DNA of 64,000 nt, from NCBI GenBank assembly GCA_021324465.1, contig JAJPJB010000048.1:1-64000 (forward strand), written 5' to 3'. Below the pieces are notes generated by a model, which was given only the letters and a program-made list of their open reading frames with translations, had not been told where the DNA came from and ran no database searches. This DNA is from Hyphomicrobiaceae bacterium. Its GTDB lineage: Bacteria; Pseudomonadota; Alphaproteobacteria; Rhizobiales; Xanthobacteraceae. The position numbers were made by a program, and so were the translations under genes. This document shows, in pieces, positions 45,196-55,985 of this stretch (position 1 is its first letter; each line of letters begins with the position of its first letter).

Positions 45196-46302
45196 CTAAC
45201 GGTGCCGGCTTTGGCTCGCAGGCTTCGGCCAATAGGGCAGACTGTACTGCGCCGAAACGTCAGCTCTTCGAGCCTGCGTCCTGCGCGCAATTAATCGCAA
45301 TTCGCGCAGCCCGAACATGATCATGGCGAGCACGAGCGGCAAAAAGAAGTCGATCACGCGGAATGTGAGCAAGGTCGCCAGCAATTCCTCGCGTGGATAT
45401 TGCGGCAGGCCGATCAGAATCGCCGCTTCGACCACGCCAAGGCTGCCCGGAGTGTGGCTGACTGTGCCGAGAAGCGTCGCCAGGACGAAGACGACAACCA
45501 AATGCACGAAGCTGATGCTTGGGCTGGGCGGCAGCAGCATGAAAATCGCCAGCGACGCCAGTAAGCGATCGGTGGTCCCGATTGCGATCTGCAGAAGCGT
45601 GCGGCGTAGATTGGGCAGGACGATCTTCCAGTTCGCGCGCCCGACAGCACGCGGCTGCGGCGCGAGCCACAGCAGATAACAGCCAATCGCCGCGAATCCC
45701 GCCAAGCCGAGCAGGCGGTTGACCCAGAGCGGCAGCTGATCGATGGCCGTCAGCGCACCCGGCGCGATCGCGACCCCGCCGCCAAGCACGAAGGCGTTGC
45801 CAAGCCAAAAGGTCAGCCCGGTCATGAACGCAATCTTGGCAACATCGACAACGGTCAAGCCCCAAAACGAGTAGACGCGGAATCGCACCAAGCCGCAGGT
45901 CAGGGTCGCTGCGCCGAGCGAGTGGCCGATCGTGTAGCTTGTGAAGCTTGCAAAGGCGACGACATGCCAGGGCATGCCGCGCTTGCCAATCGTATGCAGC
46001 GCGAACGCGTCGTAGAGCACGAGATTGGAATAGCCGGCAATCACCAGCAGCGCCGCAATGAGGATATTCCAGCCCGGCTGCGCTTGCAGCGCTTCGACGA
46101 CCTTCTCGACATCGATACCGCGCAGCAGGTGATAAAGCGTGGCGGCGGCGATCGCGACAATCACCAAGCTGAGTGCGACGCTGATCCTGTTCCGGCCGAC
46201 GCCGCGCATGATCGTCTGCGCAAGGGGAGGAGTTTCAGCCAGGACCTGTACAACTCCGTGGACGAATCGCGACGGCAAGTTCCCATCCGTTTGTAACAGC
46301 AT
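45196..46302 (-). CDS. flippase-like / lysylphosphatidylglycerol synthase TM-region (UPF0104) protein
   Basis: Multi-TM ORF; ASFTSYTIGHSLGAATLTCGLVRFRVYSFWGLT and HTPGSLGVVEAAILIGLPQYPREELLATLLTFRVIDFFLPLVLA. Start uncertain. Confidence 0.85.
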   Translation of the reverse strand: MLLQTDGNLPSRFVHGVVQVLAETPPLAQTIMRGVGRNRISVALSLVIVAIAAATLYHLLRGIDVEKVVEALQAQPGWNILIAALLVIAGYSNLVLYDAFALHTIGKRGMPWHVVAFASFTSYTIGHSLGAATLTCGLVRFRVYSFWGLTVVDVAKIAFMTGLTFWLGNAFVLGGGVAIAPGALTAIDQLPLWVNRLLGLAGFAAIGCYLLWLAPQPRAVGRANWKIVLPNLRRTLLQIAIGTTDRLLASLAIFMLLPPSPSISFVHLVVVFVLATLLGTVSHTPGSLGVVEAAILIGLPQYPREELLATLLTFRVIDFFLPLVLAMIMFGLRELRLIARRTQARRADVSAQYSLPYWPKPASQSRHR

Positions 46303-46438
46303 TGTTACGGTCCACCCGGGGGTAGACGTATGGCCGTGCCGGGACCGTCACACGATTGAGATATGAAATGGCAATTGTTGTTTACATGCGATTCGAACAA
46401 ACGACGCCGCTGCCCAGTTCCCGGCCGAAAGCAATCCC

Positions 46439-47554
46439 ATGAAAGTCCTGGTCGGGACGGACGCTTGGCGTCCGCAAGTCAATGGCGTGGTGCGCACGCT
46501 GGGTTCGCTGGCGCGGGCCGCCGGCAAGCTCGGCGTCGAGATCGACTTTCTCTCGCCGGATGGCTTTTGGACCTTTCCGGTGCCGACTTATCCGGGTCTG
46601 CGGCTCGCTCTGCCGCGCAGGAAACGCATTGCGGAGCGCATCGAAAGAGCAAGGCCGGACGCCATTCATATCGCGACAGAAGGACCGATCGGCCACGCGA
46701 TACGCGCGTATTGCCTCCGGGTCGGCCGGCCCTTCACGACGAGCTATACCACGCGCTTTCCTGAATATATTTCGGCGCGCTCGCCGATCCCTGCGGCGTG
46801 GATTTATAACGCGCTGCGGCGTTTTCACGCGGCGGCTGCGGTGACCATGGTGGCGACGCCATCACTGATGACGGAACTCTCCGCACGCGGCTTTACCAAT
46901 CTCGGCATGTGGACGCGCGGCGTCGATGTCGATCTGTTCCGTCCCGATCGTGCCATTGATCTCGGCTTTCCGCGACCGATTTTCATGTCGGTCGGGCGCG
47001 TCGCAGTCGAAAAGAATCTGCCGGCTTTCCTGTCGCTCGATTTGCCAGGCACCAAGGTCATCATCGGCGCCGGGCCGCAGGAAGCCGAGCTCAAGCGTCG
47101 TTTTCCCGACGCCAAATTCCTTGGGCAGCTGGACAACGGCATCCTTGCCGCGCATCTGGCGGCCGCCGACGTTTTTGTCTTTCCAAGCCTCACCGATACG
47201 TTCGGCATTGTGCAGCTCGAGGCGCTTGCGAGCGGCGTACCCATCGCCGCTTTTCCGGTGACCGGACCGAAAGACGTTGTCGCCAACAATCCGATCGGAG
47301 TGCTCAACGACGATCTTCGCACTGCCTGCATGCAGGCGCTCTGGATTTCCCGCGAGGCGTGCCGCGAATTCGCGCTGCGCTATTCCTGGGAGAACAGCGC
47401 GCGCCAGTTCATTGGTCATGCGCGCAAGGCGGCCCAAAGCGGTGCGCGCGCGATCGAGTCGGCGATGGCAACCGCCGATGACGCACACGAAACAGCCGGG
47501 CAGAGCCTGGTGCCCGGCTGTAACACAAGGGTCACGCATGAGCATTCTATCTGA
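46439..47554 (+). CDS. GT4-family glycosyltransferase (MgtA/SqdX-like)
   Basis: MKVLVGTDAWRPQVNGVVRTLGSLA; FMSVGRVAVEKNLPAFL; FPSLTDTFGIVQLEALASGVPIAAFPVTGPKDVV. Confidence 0.92.
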   Translation: MKVLVGTDAWRPQVNGVVRTLGSLARAAGKLGVEIDFLSPDGFWTFPVPTYPGLRLALPRRKRIAERIERARPDAIHIATEGPIGHAIRAYCLRVGRPFTTSYTTRFPEYISARSPIPAAWIYNALRRFHAAAAVTMVATPSLMTELSARGFTNLGMWTRGVDVDLFRPDRAIDLGFPRPIFMSVGRVAVEKNLPAFLSLDLPGTKVIIGAGPQEAELKRRFPDAKFLGQLDNGILAAHLAAADVFVFPSLTDTFGIVQLEALASGVPIAAFPVTGPKDVVANNPIGVLNDDLRTACMQALWISREACREFALRYSWENSARQFIGHARKAAQSGARAIESAMATADDAHETAGQSLVPGCNTRVTHEHSI

Positions 47555-48236
47555 CGCGGATTTGGACAAGCAAACGGTCGCCAAAGCCTATGCGCGCTGG
47601 GCACCGGTTTATGATCTGGTCTTCGGGGCGGTTTTTGAGCGCGGCCGGCAGGTCGCGATCACGGCCGCCGAGCGCATCGGTGGCCGCGTTCTTGAGGTCG
47701 GCGTCGGTACCGGAATTTCGCTGCCGCAATATTCGAAGAACTGCCAAATTTCCGGCATCGACATTTCCGAGCCGATGTTGCGCAAGGCGCAGGAGCGGGT
47801 CGCCGAGCTTGGCCTGACGAATGTCGAGGGCCTGTGGGTGATGGACGCCGAGCATCTGACGTTTCCCGATGATTCGTTTGACGTGGTCGTTGCGCAGCAC
47901 GTCATCACCACGGTTCCCAATCCGGAGGCGACACTTGACGAGCTTGCCCGCGTGCTCAAGCCCGGCGGCGAGATCATCCTGGTGAGCCGTGTCGGCGCCG
48001 AAGCGGGCTTGCGGCGTTCGCTTGAACATTGGTTTCAGCCCGCGGCGCGCAAGCTTGGCTGGCGCTCCGAATTCTCATTTGAGCGCTATTCGCGCTGGAC
48101 CGCGCAAACCCCTGGCATGCATCTGATCGAACGCCGCGCGGTGCCGCCGTTCGGGCACTTCAATCTGATCCGCTTCGGCAAACAGGGTGCCGTAAGGGCG
48201 GACGACATTTCCAAGCGAGAACGCGCGGCAGGTTGA
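47538..48236 (+). CDS. pmtA: class I SAM methyltransferase, phosphatidylethanolamine N-methyltransferase (PmtA)-like
   Basis: KAYARWAPVYDLVFGAVFERGRQVAITAAERIGGRVLEVGVGTGISLPQYS; overlaps the GT stop. Confidence 0.8.
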   Translation: MSILSDADLDKQTVAKAYARWAPVYDLVFGAVFERGRQVAITAAERIGGRVLEVGVGTGISLPQYSKNCQISGIDISEPMLRKAQERVAELGLTNVEGLWVMDAEHLTFPDDSFDVVVAQHVITTVPNPEATLDELARVLKPGGEIILVSRVGAEAGLRRSLEHWFQPAARKLGWRSEFSFERYSRWTAQTPGMHLIERRAVPPFGHFNLIRFGKQGAVRADDISKRERAAG

Positions 48237-48373
48237 GCCCGCCGCGGAGCATCGGTTTTCACCCCTTTGTCACATGCGGACCCTGGCGACGCGACTCACC
48301 GAAGGCTCCCGTCACACGGGGTTCATCGAATCGCCATACGCAGAACGAACGCCTGCAGGACGGGGGTTGCCAA

Positions 48374-49030
48374 ATGGAAAATTTCCTGGGTGCCTTGCGG
48401 AGTCAACGCTGGGACGACCATCGTTATTATCATCACAGCCGCATCAATCAGTCGCTGCATTTTGTCAGCGCGTTAAGCTTTCTCTTTTCCTACGTGATGA
48501 TCTTCAAGGATCCGGCGATCTCCGCGCTTGCGGGCTGGCTGGTGGCGATGACGACACGGCAGACCGGCCATTTCTTTTTCGAGCCCAAAGACTACGATCA
48601 TGTCAATCACGCCAGCCATGAATACAAGGAAGAGATCAAGGTCGGATATAACCTGCGTCGCAAGGTCGTTCTGCTGTCGATCTGGGCGCTGTCGCCGCTG
48701 CCGTTCCTGTTCAGCCCCAGCTATTTCGGCCTGTTCACACCGGCCACCAACAAATCAGAACTGGTACATCATGTTGCCATTGTCTGGCTCGCGCTCGGGA
48801 TCGGTGGGGTGATCTTCCGGACCATGCAATTGTTTTTCGTCAAGGACGTGCAGACCGGTCTGGTCTGGGCCACCAAGATTCTCACCGACCCGTTCCACGA
48901 CATCAAAATCTATCACAAGGCGCCACTTGCGCTCTTGCGCGGCGAGCTGATCGACCCCGAGATCGGGCTGAACCACTGGTGGGACGCGGAAGACGATGAT
49001 GATGTCGAGGAAGTGCCGCGGCCGACCTGA
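48374..49030 (+). CDS. membrane protein, Mpo1/DUF962-like
   Basis: HHSRINQSLHFVSALSFLF..AGWLVAMTTRQTGHFFFEPKDYDHVNH resembles the N..LH / QxxGHxFFE pattern of DUF962. Confidence 0.6.
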   Translation: MENFLGALRSQRWDDHRYYHHSRINQSLHFVSALSFLFSYVMIFKDPAISALAGWLVAMTTRQTGHFFFEPKDYDHVNHASHEYKEEIKVGYNLRRKVVLLSIWALSPLPFLFSPSYFGLFTPATNKSELVHHVAIVWLALGIGGVIFRTMQLFFVKDVQTGLVWATKILTDPFHDIKIYHKAPLALLRGELIDPEIGLNHWWDAEDDDDVEEVPRPT

Positions 49031-49240
49031 GCGGGCGTTCTGAGCGGCGAATTTCGACGAGATGGTTCTAACGTCGCCGCAAGCGAAGCGATCCAGATCG
49101 GCGGCACCGCACCCCTGCGCCTCGCCGCTGACGCTCCTTGCAATGACGTGGCGCAGGCGATTGCGGGCGGAAAGTGCGGCGGCGGCAGAGTCATGGAGCG
49201 GAGGAAGCGCGGCTGTTGCGATCAATGCCGTCTCGTCATC

Positions 49241-49276
49241 ATACCGGCGCGATTTTGGATACCGGTGCGGTTTTGC
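49241..49276 (+). repeat. 2 x 18-bp imperfect direct repeat
   Basis: ATACCGGCGCGATTTTGG followed directly by ATACCGGTGCGGTTTTGC. Confidence 0.75.
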
Positions 49277-49305
49277 GGTCTGGCACGATGCCGAATTCTC
49301 GCGCT

Positions 49306-50985
49306 TTAGCCATTGATCCGCACTGCCGGGCCAAACAGGCGCACGCGGACCATTTCCTTGAGCACGGTCCGCCTGATCGATTTGTTGGTGAGTGCCGGAT
49401 GGTGCCACCACCAGCCGTCCTCCTGCATGGCTTTGGCGGCGGCGACGAAACGATCGGCGACGGCCTCGAAATCGGTCTGCGTATAATTCAAACTGAAGAT
49501 CAGCCGGCCTGTGCCGATCCAGCTCAGCGCCAGGCCTTCGGCGCGCAGATAATATTGCAGCATCCAATTATAGCGCAGCGGCTTTGTGTAGCAGACGCAC
49601 CAGATCGACGACATGTTCGCGACTTCCACCGGCAGGCCTTCGGCGGCGAGGAGCGCGTTGAGCTGCTGTGTGCGTCGATCCCAGATCGCATCGAGATCAC
49701 GATAGAGCGCATCGGCCGCCGGGGTGCGCAAATAGCGCAGAAACTCGTTCATCGCCGCCATGACATAGGGATGCGAATTGAAGGTGCCGCGCGCAAAGCA
49801 AATGTCGGCGGGGCGGTCGTCGCGAAAGCGCTTCATCAGATCGTGGCGGCCGCAGACCACGCCGATCGGCAGGCCGCCGCCCAGCGTTTTGCCGTAAGTG
49901 ACAAGGTCGGCACGCACCCCGAAATAGTCCTGTGCGCCGCCTTTTGCGAGGCGGAAGCCGACGAAGACTTCATCGAAGATCAGAACGATGTTGCGCTCGG
50001 TGCAGACTTGGCGCAGTCGCCTGAGCCACTCGGCATAAGCCGCTTTGTCGAACCGGGCGCGGCGGCTGGAGTCGAGCAGCGCGGAATCGCTGGGCGCCGA
50101 AGCATTGGGATGCAGCGCCTGCAGCGGATTGATCAGCACGCAGGCGATATTGTGCCGCGTGCGCAACACGCGCAGCGCGTCCTCGGACATGTCGGTCAGC
50201 GTATAGGTCTCATGCGCCGGCACGGGATTGCCGACGCCCGGCTGCACGTCGCCCCACCAGCCGTGATAGGCGCCGCAAAACCGCACCAGATGCGAACGCT
50301 TGGTGTGATAGCGCGCCAGCCGCACCGCTTGCATGACGGCTTCGGTGCCGGACATGTGAAACGAGACTTCGTCGAGCCCGGAAATATCTTTGAGGAGCTC
50401 GATATTCTCAACGATCAGCGGGTGATAGAGGCCGAGCACCGGTCCCAGTGCGCGCACCCGCGCGGCGCCGCGCTCGATGGCGTCCTTGTAGAAATCGTGC
50501 CCGAACAGGTTGACGCCATAGGAACCGGTCAGATCGTAAGCGCGATTGCCATCGAGATCGGTGACGGTGACACCGCTCGAAGACGCCAGAAAGGCGGCGG
50601 ACGGCAAGTGTTCGCGGACCACGCGGCGATACTGGAACGGCACGCGATACGCATCGGTGAACTGCAGGTCCGAAATCGACCGGCTCGCCTCGGCGGTTCG
50701 TCGAATCGTTTCGGCGAAGCGCTTTTTGTAAAGCGCCGACAATCGCAGGAAACCGGCTCGACGACGCGCCGCAACTTCCGCCGGCGCTCCATCCGTGCAA
50801 AAGAACCGTTCTTCGTCGTATTCATAGAACGGCACAAAGGCAGCGAGCCGGCGCGCGATCCGTGCATGACCGGCCAGCGAGCGATGCTTGGCTTGCGACA
50901 GTTCAAGCCGTTTTTTCAGTTTCGCGACCGAAGTCGCCACTGCCGCGGCGCCAAGCCCGTAAAAGGCGAGAATCGTGCCGTCCAT
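49306..50985 (-). CDS. class III aminotransferase (GSA-aminomutase-like) with N-terminal TM-like extension
   Basis: 559 aa; FHMSGTEAVMQAVRLAR, LIFDEVFVGFR, DLVTYGKTLGGGLPIGVVCG (PLP lysine), FNSHPYVMAA. Confidence 0.9.
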   Translation of the reverse strand: MDGTILAFYGLGAAAVATSVAKLKKRLELSQAKHRSLAGHARIARRLAAFVPFYEYDEERFFCTDGAPAEVAARRRAGFLRLSALYKKRFAETIRRTAEASRSISDLQFTDAYRVPFQYRRVVREHLPSAAFLASSSGVTVTDLDGNRAYDLTGSYGVNLFGHDFYKDAIERGAARVRALGPVLGLYHPLIVENIELLKDISGLDEVSFHMSGTEAVMQAVRLARYHTKRSHLVRFCGAYHGWWGDVQPGVGNPVPAHETYTLTDMSEDALRVLRTRHNIACVLINPLQALHPNASAPSDSALLDSSRRARFDKAAYAEWLRRLRQVCTERNIVLIFDEVFVGFRLAKGGAQDYFGVRADLVTYGKTLGGGLPIGVVCGRHDLMKRFRDDRPADICFARGTFNSHPYVMAAMNEFLRYLRTPAADALYRDLDAIWDRRTQQLNALLAAEGLPVEVANMSSIWCVCYTKPLRYNWMLQYYLRAEGLALSWIGTGRLIFSLNYTQTDFEAVADRFVAAAKAMQEDGWWWHHPALTNKSIRRTVLKEMVRVRLFGPAVRING

Positions 50986-51020
50986 CGAATCGCGGTTTAG
51001 CTCGAACTTTTAACAAGCAC

Positions 51021-51926
51021 ATGACGGTCAGGACTCAAATCCTCCGCGTCGTCGAGCAGGAAGACATCAATTTTCTGCTCACCAACCGCATTCCGCGGCG
51101 GCTTGCGACGCAATTTATCGGCTGGTTCAGCCAAATCGAGCAGCCGGTGATCCGGGATCTGTCGATCGCCACCTGGCGCTTGTTTTCCGATCTCGACCTG
51201 TCGGAGGCCAAGAAATCCAAATTTTCAAGTCTGCACGACTGCTTCATTCGCGAGCTCAAGGATGGCGCGCGACCGATCGATGCCAGGCCCGATATTGTGA
51301 TCAGTCCGTGCGATGCCATCATTGGTGCACACGGCATGCTGGACGGCACCCAATTGTTTCAAGCCAAGGGCTTTCCCTACACGCTGGAAGACTTGCTACC
51401 CGATCCGGCATTGGTCGAAAAGCATCGCGATGGGTGCTATGTGACGCTGCGGCTCAAATCGAGCATGTATCATCGTTTCCATGCGCCGCACGACGCCCAC
51501 ATCGATCAGGTGATCTATGTCTCGGGGGATACCTGGAACGTCAATCCGATCGCGCTTAAGCGGATCGAGCGCCTGTTCTGCAAGAATGAGCGCGCGATCG
51601 TCCGCATGTCCCTGGCCCACGGCGGCCATCATGTGACGCTGGTCGCGGTCGCCGCCATTCTGGTGGCAAGCATCCGCCTGCATTGCATCGACGGGCTGCT
51701 CGGCCGCGACTACCGCGGCCGCAATGTCATTGTTTGTGACAGTCAGGTGCGCAAAGGCGACGAGCTCGGCTGGTTTCAACACGGCTCGACCGTCATTGTG
51801 TTCGCGCCCGACGGCTTTGCGTTGTGCGAGAATGTTCAGGAGGGCGCGATAATCCATATGGGGCAGCCGCTGCTGCGGATGTCCGGAAGCATTTTGAAGT
51901 CTAGCCGGCCTTTTTCATGTCCCTAG
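51021..51926 (+). CDS. psd: phosphatidylserine decarboxylase family protein (full-length type)
   Basis: FSSLHDCFIRELKDGARPIDARPDIVISPCDAIIGAHG; MYHRFHAPHDAHI; pyruvoyl cleavage-type GWFQHGSTVIVF (Ser codon 51786-51788). Confidence 0.9.
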   Translation: MTVRTQILRVVEQEDINFLLTNRIPRRLATQFIGWFSQIEQPVIRDLSIATWRLFSDLDLSEAKKSKFSSLHDCFIRELKDGARPIDARPDIVISPCDAIIGAHGMLDGTQLFQAKGFPYTLEDLLPDPALVEKHRDGCYVTLRLKSSMYHRFHAPHDAHIDQVIYVSGDTWNVNPIALKRIERLFCKNERAIVRMSLAHGGHHVTLVAVAAILVASIRLHCIDGLLGRDYRGRNVIVCDSQVRKGDELGWFQHGSTVIVFAPDGFALCENVQEGAIIHMGQPLLRMSGSILKSSRPFSCP

Positions 51927-52536
51927 CCTGGGCATCATCAAGCTCATTGGCGCGCTTGCAGGCCGGCCGGCTGCTCACCCGTTTCCAATACTGTTCGAAG
52001 GCGGGCCGCCGTTCGAGCATGCCGAACATCATGCCGAAGCCAATATGCGATCCGACATAGAGATCGGCCGCGGTGAAATGGTTACCGACGAGATATTCGC
52101 TCTTCGATATTGCAGCCTCGAGCGTATCTATCGCCCGTGCGTAGTTGCCATAACCCATCATCCGTTCGCGCTCGGGCGGCACGACAAAACCGAGCGCCTT
52201 GTTGCTCGACGCGGCCTCGATCGGGCCGGCGCAAAAGAACAGCCAGCGATAATAGGGCGCGCGCAGTCGGTCGCCCGCCGGCGGGGCAAGCCGCGCTTGC
52301 GGAAAGGCGTCCGCCAGATAGGCGCAGATCGCCGCCGTCTCGGTCACGATGGCATCGCCGTGGCGCAAGGCCGGCACCTTGCCCATCGGATTGATGGCGA
52401 GATAGGCAGGTCCTTTCATGGTCGAGGCATAATCCAAAAGTTCAACTTTGTAAGGCTGGCCGACTTCCTCCAGCATCCACCGCGCGACACGGCCGCGCGA
52501 CTGTGGATTGGTGTAAAGCACGAGTTCGTCTGCCAT
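51901..52536 (-). CDS. glutathione S-transferase family protein
   Basis: LVLYTNPQSRGRVARWMLEEVGQPYKVELLDYASTMKGPAYLAINPMGKVPALRHGDAIVTETAAICAYLADAFP. Confidence 0.93.
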   Translation of the reverse strand: MADELVLYTNPQSRGRVARWMLEEVGQPYKVELLDYASTMKGPAYLAINPMGKVPALRHGDAIVTETAAICAYLADAFPQARLAPPAGDRLRAPYYRWLFFCAGPIEAASSNKALGFVVPPERERMMGYGNYARAIDTLEAAISKSEYLVGNHFTAADLYVGSHIGFGMMFGMLERRPAFEQYWKRVSSRPACKRANELDDAQARDMKKAG

Positions 52537-53220: not shown

Positions 53221-54489
53221 TTACCGGGACGGCAGTCGCGCCGACTGCAGCGCGGTCTTGGCCGTGCGGCTGCGGAGCGATCGGCGACTGAGCACGCGCG
53301 CAGCGCTGAGCGGAATGTCGAGGGCTGCCGGCCAGGGGTCGTCCCAGGCAAAGACCGCTGCCGAAGAGGCGCGGCGCAGCGAACGGATGTAATCGCCGGG
53401 CGATAGCCGTCCGCTTGCGATCTCGTGCAGGCAAGCGACAAGGTCGCGCGCAAAATACACCCACTTCACGCCGCTGCGCGCCGCGCGCGGATTGACTGCT
53501 TCGCCGCTTGCGAGCTGCCAGGCTATTGCCGGAAAGTCGAGGCCTGCCGCGGCCCCGAGCGCGATCCAGGTCCAGGCCCGTGCGTTGACATCGAGAATTT
53601 TGTAGAGACCTTGGCGCCCGTCGAATTTGAATTCGATCTCAACCAGGCCGCTATAGTCGAGCGACGTGAGGAAGCGCACAGCCGCCGCTTCGATCTCGGG
53701 CGCGTCGATGGTTTCGACGAGAGTGCTGGTGAAACCGAATTCGACCGGGTACTGCCGCCGCCGGCGCGCCACGAGTGCACCGATCGGAGCGCCGCGATCC
53801 CATATGCCGGCATAGGAAAACTGTGCTGAGCCGTCGCCGGGTATCAGCTCTTGAATCATAATATTGTCCGTGCCGACCAACGCCTTCGCTTGTTCATAGC
53901 GGGCGCGCAGCACTTGCCCGTTATCTGCTCGCCAGGCCTTGGCATCGACAAAGGCATTGCGCGCCTCACGGACCGTGGGCTTGAGGATCACCGGAAACGG
54001 CAGATCGATCTCGGCGAGATCGTCGTGGGCGCGCGGATAATAGGTGCCTGGATAGGGTAGACCGAGCATCGCGGCGCGCGCATTCATTTGCCGCTTGTCA
54101 TAGGCGAAACGGACCGTCTCCCAGGCCGGCGTCGTGAGGGTGAAGACGGTCGAGAGTGCGGCGTGATTTTGCGCAACAAAGCGCAGGTCAGCGTCGCTGC
54201 CGGGAAACAGCATCCAGCCCGAAAGGCCGCAGCGATGATGCAGGTCGCCGAGAAAGCGGAGCGCCCCCTCGTCACGCGGTCCCGGCCAGGTGAAGCTGCG
54301 CGTCACGTAACGTGAAAGCTTGGCGAGCGGGCTGTCGTCGGTGACGAGCCAGACCGGAATGCCGCGCCGGCCGAGGCTGCGCGCAATTGCGAGAGTGCCA
54401 TGCGCGCCGCCGAGGAGGATGGCGCCGCGCCGCGTCTGTGTTCTGATCTCGGTCTGCAATCTCGGCGCCGCTTGTTCGGATTGTCTCAT
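53221..54489 (-). CDS. ATP-grasp domain protein (carboxylate-amine ligase-like)
   Basis: AILLGGAHGTLAIARSLGRRGIPVWLVTDD; FPVILKPTVREARNAF; IMIQELIPGDGSAQFSYAG; LVEIEFKFDGRQGLYKILDVNARAWTW. Confidence 0.88.
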   Translation of the reverse strand: MRQSEQAAPRLQTEIRTQTRRGAILLGGAHGTLAIARSLGRRGIPVWLVTDDSPLAKLSRYVTRSFTWPGPRDEGALRFLGDLHHRCGLSGWMLFPGSDADLRFVAQNHAALSTVFTLTTPAWETVRFAYDKRQMNARAAMLGLPYPGTYYPRAHDDLAEIDLPFPVILKPTVREARNAFVDAKAWRADNGQVLRARYEQAKALVGTDNIMIQELIPGDGSAQFSYAGIWDRGAPIGALVARRRRQYPVEFGFTSTLVETIDAPEIEAAAVRFLTSLDYSGLVEIEFKFDGRQGLYKILDVNARAWTWIALGAAAGLDFPAIAWQLASGEAVNPRAARSGVKWVYFARDLVACLHEIASGRLSPGDYIRSLRRASSAAVFAWDDPWPAALDIPLSAARVLSRRSLRSRTAKTALQSARLPSR

Positions 54490-55751
54490 TGCGGCTGCGA
54501 CAGGTTGTGCGCGGCCGCGCCGAATTCGGAATCGGCAGACGACAAAAATTCGCGGCCGACGCTGGCGGTGTCGGCCAACGCCGCCTTTGTCACTGCGTAT
54601 GCGGTGAAAGGCGCGCCGGCAATGAAGCGCAACAGCGGTCCATAGCTTCGAACGGCGTAGGAACCGACAAAGTGCAGTTTTGCCACGGTCGATTCAAAGC
54701 CGGTACCGAGCAGGGGCGCGCCGCCATCGCAGGCGATCTTGTCGAGGATTCGCCGCGACAGGATCCCAAGCCGTGCAATGTCGACGCGATAGCCAGTACC
54801 CAGCAAGACATGATCGAAAGTTCGCGCGCCATTGTCGAGCTCGAGCACGATGCCGGCGGTTGTCGCACGCACCCCGGTAATGATGCGCCCGGTATTGCAG
54901 CTCACGTTGGCAAAACGCGGCTTGAGCCAGCCGGCGGCGGCGGGCTTGAGACAGCGTCGGGAAAATTCTTCGCGCAAATTTTTCGGCAGATGCCGGGTGA
55001 GACCGGGAAATTCCGCGAGCCAGCTCAGTGGAAACGGTCCTACGGCCGAGGGTGCGTCGAGCGCTTGGCGTAACCGCCGCAGCGAGGATTTGGCCCCTCC
55101 GTCGGTCAGATTGTCCAGCCAGCGAATATCACCCCGGCTGATGAGCTCGGCTGCCGCGCCGGCTTCCGACAACAGCGCTGCGGATTCGCACGCGCTTTGG
55201 CCGCGGCCGACGACCGCAACACGCTTGCCGCCAAAGATCGACAGGTCGGCGTGATCGCAGGTATGCGAAACAACATCCTTGGACAGGCCGGCGAAGAGCG
55301 GCGGCCGATAGTCCTGATTGCGCAAGCCCGTCGCGACGACGACGCGGTCGGCGGAGATCGTCTCGCCGTCGCGCAGCGTCAGCGTGAAACCATTGCTGCC
55401 GGCATCGACGAGACGTACGGTGCGATCATCGAGCTGCGGCACCGCGCGCTTTTGGAACCATTCGCCGTAATCGATGAAATCTTCGAGCGGCAGGAGCCTG
55501 TCGTCATCGATGTTATGATCGCGCGCATAAGCATCGAGCGAATGCGCGTGGTTCGGGCTCGCAAGGTGCGTGCCGTGCCACGGCGAGCGCAGCTTCATGC
55601 CTTTCGGCATGTTCTCACGCCAAAAGCCCATGGGCGCGCCGAACACGCAGGTTTTGACGCCAGATTGATCAAGATGCGCGGCAATCGACAGCCCGTACGG
55701 GCCCGCGCCGACGATGGCGACCTCGCAGAAGTTGATTGGTCTCGACGTCAT
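54486..55751 (-). CDS. FAD/NAD(P)-binding oxidoreductase
   Basis: CEVAIVGAGPYGLSIAAHLDQSG; GKRVAVVGRGQSACESAALLSEAGA; DHVLLGTGYRVDI. Overlaps the ATP-grasp gene by 4 bp. Confidence 0.9.
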   Translation of the reverse strand: MTSRPINFCEVAIVGAGPYGLSIAAHLDQSGVKTCVFGAPMGFWRENMPKGMKLRSPWHGTHLASPNHAHSLDAYARDHNIDDDRLLPLEDFIDYGEWFQKRAVPQLDDRTVRLVDAGSNGFTLTLRDGETISADRVVVATGLRNQDYRPPLFAGLSKDVVSHTCDHADLSIFGGKRVAVVGRGQSACESAALLSEAGAAAELISRGDIRWLDNLTDGGAKSSLRRLRQALDAPSAVGPFPLSWLAEFPGLTRHLPKNLREEFSRRCLKPAAAGWLKPRFANVSCNTGRIITGVRATTAGIVLELDNGARTFDHVLLGTGYRVDIARLGILSRRILDKIACDGGAPLLGTGFESTVAKLHFVGSYAVRSYGPLLRFIAGAPFTAYAVTKAALADTASVGREFLSSADSEFGAAAHNLSQPQ

Positions 55752-55985
55752 ATTGCGACGTTGGGCCTGCCGCCTAATATTGGTTAAGGCGCTGATAACG
55801 GGCGAGAAAGTCTGCAACCGCAAGGTAGCAGATTTGCGCGTTCCGGTGCGAATACGGTCGCATTAGCGTTAAGGCGACTTGAGCATCGGCGGAGGGATCG
55901 CCGGCAGGCCGGAGAAATCAATGGGAATACCGACGCGATTGTCGGAAGCGGAAAAGATGCGCTAGTTTTCCGCGGCGCTTCGGGC

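What the first reader, a model, noticed from the sequence alone, without database searches (positions are those of the whole stretch)
45196..52536. Candidate undescribed lipid-modification cluster: flippase, GT4, PmtA-like, Mpo1-like, class III aminotransferase, full-length PSD
Six consecutive genes all point to membrane lipid chemistry: a UPF0104-type flippase, a GT4 glycosyltransferase (MgtA/SqdX-like), a PmtA-like methyltransferase overlapping it, an Mpo1/DUF962-like membrane protein, a long aminotransferase and a PSD. I do not recognise this combination as a named pathway. A possible logic is an amino- or glyco-phospholipid head group built by amination/decarboxylation and N-methylation, then flipped. 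Gene identities come from motifs; the joint function is inference.
Basis: partly seen in the sequence, partly recalled or inferred. Interest (0 to 1): 0.72.

Follow-up and report, generated by a model that had tools for sequence, protein, structure and literature searches.

The report
Phosphate-stress membrane lipid gene module

Summary
The core is not six genes but three: a full-length phosphatidylserine-decarboxylase homologue (PSD2), a 559-aa class III aminotransferase (AT) and a divergent Mpo1-like membrane protein. Among 299 sampled genomes of the phylum, PSD2 and the Mpo1-like gene occur in exactly the same 22, and AT in 21 of those (the exception is a 78%-complete MAG). PSD2 adjoins AT in 81/81 loci and the Mpo1-like gene in 79/81. 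PmtA (59/81) and a GT4 glycosyltransferase (67/81) are lineage-dependent partners. The flippase appears only in the window's own genus; the GST at 51901-52536 is not part of it. New here: PhoB-box-type promoters precede AT and the Mpo1-like gene in alpha-, beta- and gammaproteobacteria, with the same geometry as at this genome's own plcP-like gene. All 15 non-f50 triad genomes encode PlcP; the seven without PlcP carry a PHP-like-GT4 fusion with the triad. Relatives place PlcP, PhoU, Ppk and Ppx beside the block. I conclude that this is a phosphate-starvation lipid-remodelling module that makes an amine-bearing lipid. The exact chemistry is inferred, not shown. No description was found in the open literature searched.

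The parts
51021..51926 (+). PSD2: full-length (E. coli-type) phosphatidylserine decarboxylase homologue, core gene; distinct from the short housekeeping Psd beside pssA on contig C41
   Evidence: TIGR00163 above cut-off; PDB 7cnw/6l06 E. coli PSD; co-occurs with AT and Mpo1-like; housekeeping psd-pssA elsewhere
49306..50985 (-). AT: class III PLP aminotransferase with an N-terminal hydrophobic helix and a ~125-aa helical extension, core gene; PLP lysine K366 by motif
   Evidence: PF00202; nearest solved relative the mycosubtilin AMT domain; invariant residues; model
48374..49030 (+). Mpo1-like integral membrane protein, core gene; H21, H30, H67 and E71 align with the invariant H/H/H/E of Mpo1-like proteins
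   Evidence: sub-threshold Pfam match; profile comparison probability 78%, E 1.9e-5; A2/A5 conservation; helical model
47538..48236 (+). PmtA-like SAM-dependent phospholipid N-methyltransferase, lineage-dependent partner (59/81 loci); start moved to ATG 47538
   Evidence: 8ys9 E 7e-44; neighbour counts; paralogue elsewhere at C85, 64% identical
46439..47554 (+). GT4 glycosyltransferase, Agt-like candidate; only close GT4 of its kind in the genome
   Evidence: Pfam GT4 domains; sole close copy; 53% identical homologue directly beside PlcP in L087
45196..46302 (-). MprF-flippase-domain protein without synthase domain; genus-specific neighbour, peripheral
   Evidence: NF033480 residues 39-347; 6 of 81 loci; beside GT21-PlcP-PhoU in L051
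51010..51027 (-). PhoB-box-like site CCGTCATGTGCTTGTTAA reading towards AT; its first half overlaps the PSD2 start codon
   Evidence: conserved at fixed spacing across classes
50994..50999 (-). -10 element TAAACC, 10 nt after the box, as at plcP in the same genome (TAAAAG)
48309..48326 (+). PhoB-box-like site CCGTCACACGGGGTTCAT upstream of the Mpo1-like gene
   Evidence: same element in L024, L025, L029, L035, L051; enrichment
48337..48342 (+). -10 element TACGCA, 10 nt after that box

Best explanation
The block is a phosphate-starvation (PhoB-controlled) membrane-lipid remodelling module. Its obligate core, PSD2 + AT + Mpo1-like, makes one amine-bearing lipid in a membrane-bound sequence. Partners supply and finish it: a phospholipid head-group phosphoesterase (PlcP elsewhere in the genome, or a PHP-like domain fused to GT4 in one gammaproteobacterial family) and a GT4 glycosyltransferase turn phospholipid into diacylglycerol and glycolipid, and in PC-making alphaproteobacteria a dedicated PmtA methylates the amine. 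The chemistry I think most likely, inferred and not shown: the Mpo1-like Fe-dependent oxygenase oxidises an alpha-hydroxy-acid group on the lipid to a keto acid, AT aminates it to a serine-like alpha-amino acid, PSD2 decarboxylates it to the amine, and PmtA methylates it, giving analogues of PE and PC that replace or spare phospholipids. Shown by computation: obligate triad, shared promoter type, and PlcP/PHP-GT4/GT4 context. Inferred: PhoB binding, lipid product, reaction order.
For: Co-inheritance: PSD2 and Mpo1-like in the same 22/299 genomes, AT in 21 of them, one copy each. Adjacency 81/81 and 79/81, kept on a Sphingomonas plasmid at 53-61% identity and as one collinear operon AT-GT4 fusion-PSD2-Mpo1-like in family f50. 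Promoters: in 44 dereplicated divergent loci [CT]TGTNA lies at one fixed offset in 16 (shuffle mean 0.1, maximum 2) and TA at exactly 10 nt after in 23. Upstream of Mpo1-like, 28/58 dereplicated loci score >= 9.6 against 2.3% of background, 14 with TA at +10. Control: 11/20 plcP promoters score >= 10 against 2% background, and this genome's plcP-like gene and its divergent GT21 neighbour both have the box with TAAAAG 10 nt on. Context: PlcP, PhoU, Ppk and Ppx beside the block in L025, L029, L035, L051, L053, L057, L087, L099. PlcP in all 15 non-f50 triad genomes (102/299 overall, P about 5e-8 ignoring kinship); all 7 f50 triad genomes lack it and carry the fusion, found in no other sampled genome.
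Against: No expression, binding or lipid data. The first box half at AT is confounded by the PSD2 start codon (ATGAC). Acetobacteraceae and several sphingomonad loci lack the box at AT. The window's own boxes are weak (score about 10.3 in 64 kb); the case is comparative. PSD2 keeps the residues of ordinary PS decarboxylase, so its substrate may simply be phosphatidylserine, which would not save phosphate. AT is nearest to beta-amino-forming enzymes, not alpha-keto-acid transaminases. PlcP is common, and kinship among genomes inflates the co-occurrence P value.
Confidence: 0.6

Rival explanations
1. A phosphate-stress isoenzyme set for ordinary PE and PC: PSD2 decarboxylates phosphatidylserine, PmtA methylates PE, and AT and the Mpo1-like protein modify acyl chains or supply a precursor.
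For: PSD2 passes the general PSD model and aligns with E. coli PSD around the catalytic Asp and YHRxHxP motif; the PmtA-like enzyme is closest to a true PE methyltransferase.
Against: A complete psd-pssA operon and a second PmtA already exist. More PE or PC does not save phosphate. It does not explain why AT and Mpo1-like are never separated from PSD2.
Confidence: 0.17
2. Fatty-acid-centred pathway: the Mpo1-like oxygenase acts on 2-hydroxy fatty acids, AT aminates a keto fatty acyl chain, PSD2 decarboxylates a lipo-amino acid, giving an amino-acyl or long-chain amine lipid.
For: The Pfam namesake of the Mpo1-like family is a 2-hydroxypalmitate dioxygenase. AT is closest in sequence and predicted fold to the mycosubtilin AMT domain, annotated as the aminotransferase domain of a hybrid PKS/NRPS; that it acts on beta-ketoacyl chains is my own knowledge.
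Against: Membership in Mpo1-like is sub-threshold; no acyl-carrier or acyl-CoA gene is conserved in the block; the GT4/PmtA partners point to head groups.
Confidence: 0.13
3. Salvage or turnover: under phosphate limitation PSD2 and AT dismantle PS/PE head groups so that phosphate and nitrogen are recovered and the diacylglycerol is glycosylated by GT4.
For: Link to PlcP, PhoU, Ppk and Ppx and Pho-type promoters.
Against: AT is GSAM/AMT-like, not like ethanolamine-phosphate lyases; a dedicated PmtA in the same block points to building, not removal; PlcP alone already makes diacylglycerol.
Confidence: 0.07
4. The block is part of sphingolipid metabolism.
For: On the Sphingomonas plasmid a GNAT protein, desaturase, LptF/G, an aminotransferase class I/II, ACP and an NAD(P)H-binding protein, which I read as ceramide-synthesis genes, lie 1-12 kb away.
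Against: The own genome has no serine-palmitoyltransferase match above 34% identity; these genes are not conserved beside the block elsewhere.
Confidence: 0.03

Closest known systems
PlcP-Agt phosphate-stress lipid remodelling (e.g. Methylosinus trichosporium OB3b, PMC9239053; marine heterotrophs, PMC4796936)
   Same: Metallophosphoesterase plus GT4 glycosyltransferase context; Pho-box-type promoters on plcP; found with PhoU/Ppk/Ppx genes
   Different: Adds an obligate PSD2-AT-Mpo1-like triad, often with its own PmtA; triad present in only 15 of the 102 sampled PlcP genomes
Canonical PE/PC branch (PssA, Psd, PmtA)
   Same: PSD2 and PmtA belong to the same enzyme families
   Different: Separate from the housekeeping psd-pssA operon (short Psd) and from the second pmtA; PSD2 is the full-length E. 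coli type and is tied to AT and Mpo1-like
Mpo1 / DUF962 (PF06127) 2-hydroxy fatty acid dioxygenases
   Same: Three His and one Glu metal-ligand pattern, membrane helices
   Different: About 219 aa against the 95-position Pfam domain, long C-terminal extension (K86-E87-x2-K90-V-G-Y-N, then W139 to P185), below the Pfam cut-off
Mycosubtilin AMT domain / GSAM-type class III aminotransferases
   Same: PLP fold and active-site motifs; best match by sequence and by predicted fold
   Different: About 26% identical; stand-alone enzyme with a hydrophobic N-terminal helix and a ~125-aa extension; not in a PKS/NRPS
MprF flippase domain
   Same: P0001 matches residues 3-311 of the MprF model
   Different: No lysyl transferase domain; genus-specific neighbour

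Membership tests
Phosphatidylserine decarboxylase (full-length, TIGR00163/PF02666) | Score above curated family cut-offs | tested here: met
   157.1 against 111.75 bits; PF02666 188 against 22
Phosphatidylserine decarboxylase (full-length, TIGR00163/PF02666) | Catalytic Asp/His and the self-cleavage GST motif | tested here: met
   D98, H151, H154 and G255-S256-T257 invariant in 28 homologues; aligned to E. coli PSD up to residue 218
Phosphatidylserine decarboxylase (full-length, TIGR00163/PF02666) | Decarboxylates phosphatidylserine | not testable with these tools
   needs enzymology or complementation
PmtA phospholipid N-methyltransferase | Best solved relative is a PE N-methyltransferase | tested here: met
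   8ys9 E 6.9e-44, next best 1.5e-14
PmtA phospholipid N-methyltransferase | NCBIfam PmtA equivalog (NF045882) cut-off | tested here: not met
   155.8 against 390 bits; the C85 paralogue also fails, 136 bits
Mpo1-like (PF06127) | Pfam gathering score | tested here: not met
   20.8 against 24 bits; f50 members 23-27 bits
Mpo1-like (PF06127) | Invariant H-x8-H and H-x3-E metal-ligand pattern | tested here: met
   H21/H30/H67/E71 align with H15/H24/H62/E66
Mpo1-like (PF06127) | Oxygenase activity on 2-hydroxy fatty acids | not testable with these tools
   needs enzymology
Class III aminotransferase | Pfam domain, PLP lysine and fold | tested here: met
   PF00202 126 bits; K366 in GK(T)xGGG invariant; predicted-fold match to 6kfm E 1.9e-23
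PhoB regulon | Pho box (direct repeat, 11-bp period) with a -10 at the proper distance, shared with plcP | tested here: met
   not met in Acetobacteraceae and some sphingomonad loci
PhoB regulon | PhoB binding and induction by low phosphate | not testable with these tools
   needs EMSA/ChIP and transcript data
PlcP-Agt lipid remodelling | PlcP encoded in the genome | tested here: met
   C91 gene, below LpxH cut-offs; not adjacent to the window block
PlcP-Agt lipid remodelling | GT4 is an orthologue of characterised Agt | tested here: inconclusive
   53% identical to a GT4 beside PlcP in L087; no characterised Agt sequence was compared
Sphingolipid biosynthesis cluster | Serine palmitoyltransferase present | tested here: not met
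   best own-genome matches 31-34% identity, not specific to Spt

The most novel reading that the evidence does not exclude
A PhoB-controlled pathway that makes phosphorus-free analogues of PE and PC by oxidation, transamination, decarboxylation and N-methylation of one head-group carbon on a diacylglyceryl or glycosyl lipid: a new class of bacterial amino/betaine-like lipid made by Bradyrhizobium, Nitrobacter and many betaproteobacteria.
Probability: 0.15. Interest if true: 0.9.

Novelty: new variant of a known kind. Interest (0 to 1): 0.7.

Why it matters
Phosphate limits growth in many soils and waters, and bacteria adapt by swapping phospholipids for other lipids. This module is common in Bradyrhizobium and occurs in Nitrobacter, Methylocapsa, Zoogloea, Sulfuricella and acetic-acid-bacteria relatives, yet its product is unknown. 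It turns two orphan families (the AT and the Mpo1-like protein) into a concrete, testable pathway with a growth condition, low phosphate, under which to look. If the product is a new amine lipid, it would affect biomarker lipidomics, soil phosphorus budgets and rhizobial membrane biology.

Tried and rejected
Six-gene operon: rejected, since strands alternate, the flippase is genus-specific and the GST is unconserved. Sigma-70 reading of the AT promoter: rejected because the TTGTNA-to-TA spacing is 11 bp, not about 17. Fold search with the Mpo1-like model: no PDB match with E <= 0.001, so the fold is uninformative. Literature: no paper linking PSD, class III aminotransferase and lipid genes, or a plcP-PSD link, in the open-access library; subscription journals are not covered. 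PHP identity of the f50 fusion rests on my reading of motifs (DLHCHD, TNHN, PHP, SDDH); Pfam and PDB searches were silent. Defence systems: no PADLOC hit. Sphingolipid role: considered because of L023, not supported elsewhere.
Full report
What is there. The window holds a flippase-domain protein (45196-46302, -), a GT4 glycosyltransferase (46439-47554, +), a PmtA-like methyltransferase (47538-48236, +), an Mpo1-like membrane protein (48374-49030, +), a class III aminotransferase (AT, 49306-50985, -) and a full-length PSD (51021-51926, +), followed by a GST (51901-52536, -). The genes are neighbours but on alternating strands.

Is it more than chance? Eighty loci encoding the AT were collected from a genome collection, plus one Sphingomonas plasmid. 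In these 81 loci the PSD homologue is adjacent in 81, the Mpo1-like gene in 79, a GT4 in 67, a PmtA in 59, the flippase in 6 (window genus) and the GST in 1. In an evenly drawn sample of 299 genomes of the phylum, the Mpo1-like gene and PSD2 occur in exactly the same 22 genomes, and the AT in 21 of them; the missing one is a 78%-complete MAG. By simple counting this is about 1e-33. Kinship inflates that figure, but the genomes span alphaproteobacteria and other classes of the phylum, and the spread is patchy. On the Sphingomonas plasmid all four proteins (PSD, AT, Mpo1-like, PmtA) keep the same arrangement at 53-61% identity. The functional unit is therefore the triad PSD2-AT-Mpo1-like, with GT4 and PmtA as frequent partners.

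The enzymes. PSD2 is an E. coli-type PSD with catalytic residues conserved. The genome's housekeeping short Psd sits beside PssA on another contig, so PSD2 is extra. PmtA is also extra: a 64% identical paralogue lies elsewhere. AT's nearest solved relative, by sequence and by predicted fold, is the aminotransferase domain of mycosubtilin synthase, then GSAM and beta-transaminases. It has a hydrophobic N-terminal helix and a helical extension, which suggests a membrane-bound substrate (inference). The Mpo1-like family keeps the three His and one Glu that are invariant among true Mpo1-like proteins but has a long conserved C-terminal part of its own.

Phosphate. Several relatives place the block next to a PlcP/LpxH-like metallophosphoesterase and PhoU (L025, L029, L035, L051) or PlcP, polyphosphate kinase and exopolyphosphatase (L053, L057, L087, L099) (Ppk and Ppx named from sequence by eye). 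The published PlcP-Agt pathway for phosphate-stress lipid remodelling combines a PlcP with a GT4 enzyme (PMC9239053). All 15 triad genomes outside f50 encode PlcP (102 of 299 overall; P about 5e-8 without correcting for kinship). The seven f50 triad genomes lack it. Six of them carry the PHP-like-GT4 fusion, the seventh shows its C-terminal part at a contig edge, and the fusion was found in no other sampled genome. A GT4 beside the block is missing in Acetobacteraceae and Sphingomonas, so the partner set is not universal.

Promoters. Upstream of AT, across classes, CAT-N4-[CT]TGTNAN-N10-TA is conserved at fixed spacing. In 44 dereplicated loci the half-site occurs at that offset in 16 (0.1 expected, maximum 2 in 1000 shuffles) and TA at exactly that distance in 23. 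The spacing does not fit an ordinary sigma-70 promoter and matches a Pho box followed by a -10 (the E. coli phoA comparison is from my own knowledge). The first half coincides with the PSD2 start codon and is therefore not independent evidence. An independent second case lies upstream of the Mpo1-like gene: 28 of 58 dereplicated loci score at or above 9.6 against 2.3% of random windows, 14 with TA at the same distance; in the window it is CCGTCACACGGGGTTCAT-N10-TACGCA at 48309-48342. GT4 upstream regions are also enriched (18/38), PmtA less so (5/36). Positive control: 11 of 20 plcP upstream regions score >= 10 against 2% of background, and this genome's own plcP-like gene and its divergent GT21 neighbour both carry the box with TAAAAG 10 nt on, the same architecture as at AT (TAAACC). 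Control by PhoB is thus the simplest reading in most lineages. Acetobacteraceae and several sphingomonad loci lack it.

Mechanism. Shown by computation: the obligate triad, its shared promoter type and its phosphate-stress lipid context. Inferred: the module makes an amine-bearing membrane lipid under phosphate limitation. The order that fits all four enzymes on one carbon is oxidation of an alpha-hydroxy acid (Mpo1-like), transamination (AT), decarboxylation (PSD2) and N-methylation (PmtA). I give this exact chemistry about 0.15. The broader statement, a PhoB-controlled lipid-remodelling module with an amine-bearing product, I give 0.6. Rivals are an isoenzyme set for ordinary PE/PC, a fatty-acid-centred route and head-group salvage.

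Novelty. The setting (phosphate-stress lipid remodelling) is known; the triad is not described in the open literature searched. I file it as a new variant of a known kind.

Noticed in passing
L023:18728-31638 (NZ_CP155753.1 plasmid): In Sphingomonas parapaucimobilis the conserved four-gene block lies 1-12 kb from what look like sphingolipid genes (GNAT, desaturase, LptF/G, class I/II aminotransferase, ACP, NAD(P)H-binding protein).
   Followed up: partly
L133:7374-10109 (-), also L132, L134-L138: A ~900-aa fusion of an N-terminal PHP-like phosphoesterase domain (by motif; Pfam silent) to a GT4 glycosyltransferase, only found in triad genomes of family f50, possibly a fused stand-in for PlcP plus Agt.
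   Followed up: partly
L155:8417-8580 (own genome C91): plcP-like gene and an HpnI-like GT21 gene are divergent, each with a Pho box and TAAAAG 10 nt on.
   Followed up: yes
window 50983-50999: In the window and in Bradyrhizobium the AT start codon is about 14 nt from the TA of the -10, so the AT transcript would be leaderless; betaproteobacterial loci instead have a Shine-Dalgarno-like GGAGG.
   Followed up: no
window 46293-46308: Palindrome GTAACAGCATTGTTAC over the flippase start codon between flippase and GT4, possible repressor site.
   Followed up: no
window 53221-55823 (-): ATP-grasp protein and FAD-dependent oxidoreductase with 4-nt overlapping ORFs; possibly a small-molecule pathway unrelated to the lipid block.
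   Followed up: no
L051:4090-14500: In this congener flippase, GT21, PlcP, PhoU, PSD2, AT, Mpo1-like, PmtA and GT4 form one contiguous cluster.
   Followed up: partly
L044, L057, L098: Record titles (Vicinamibacteria, Chitinophaga pinensis, Frankia) disagree with their proteobacterial-looking block; MAG contamination, mislabelling or transfer.
   Followed up: no
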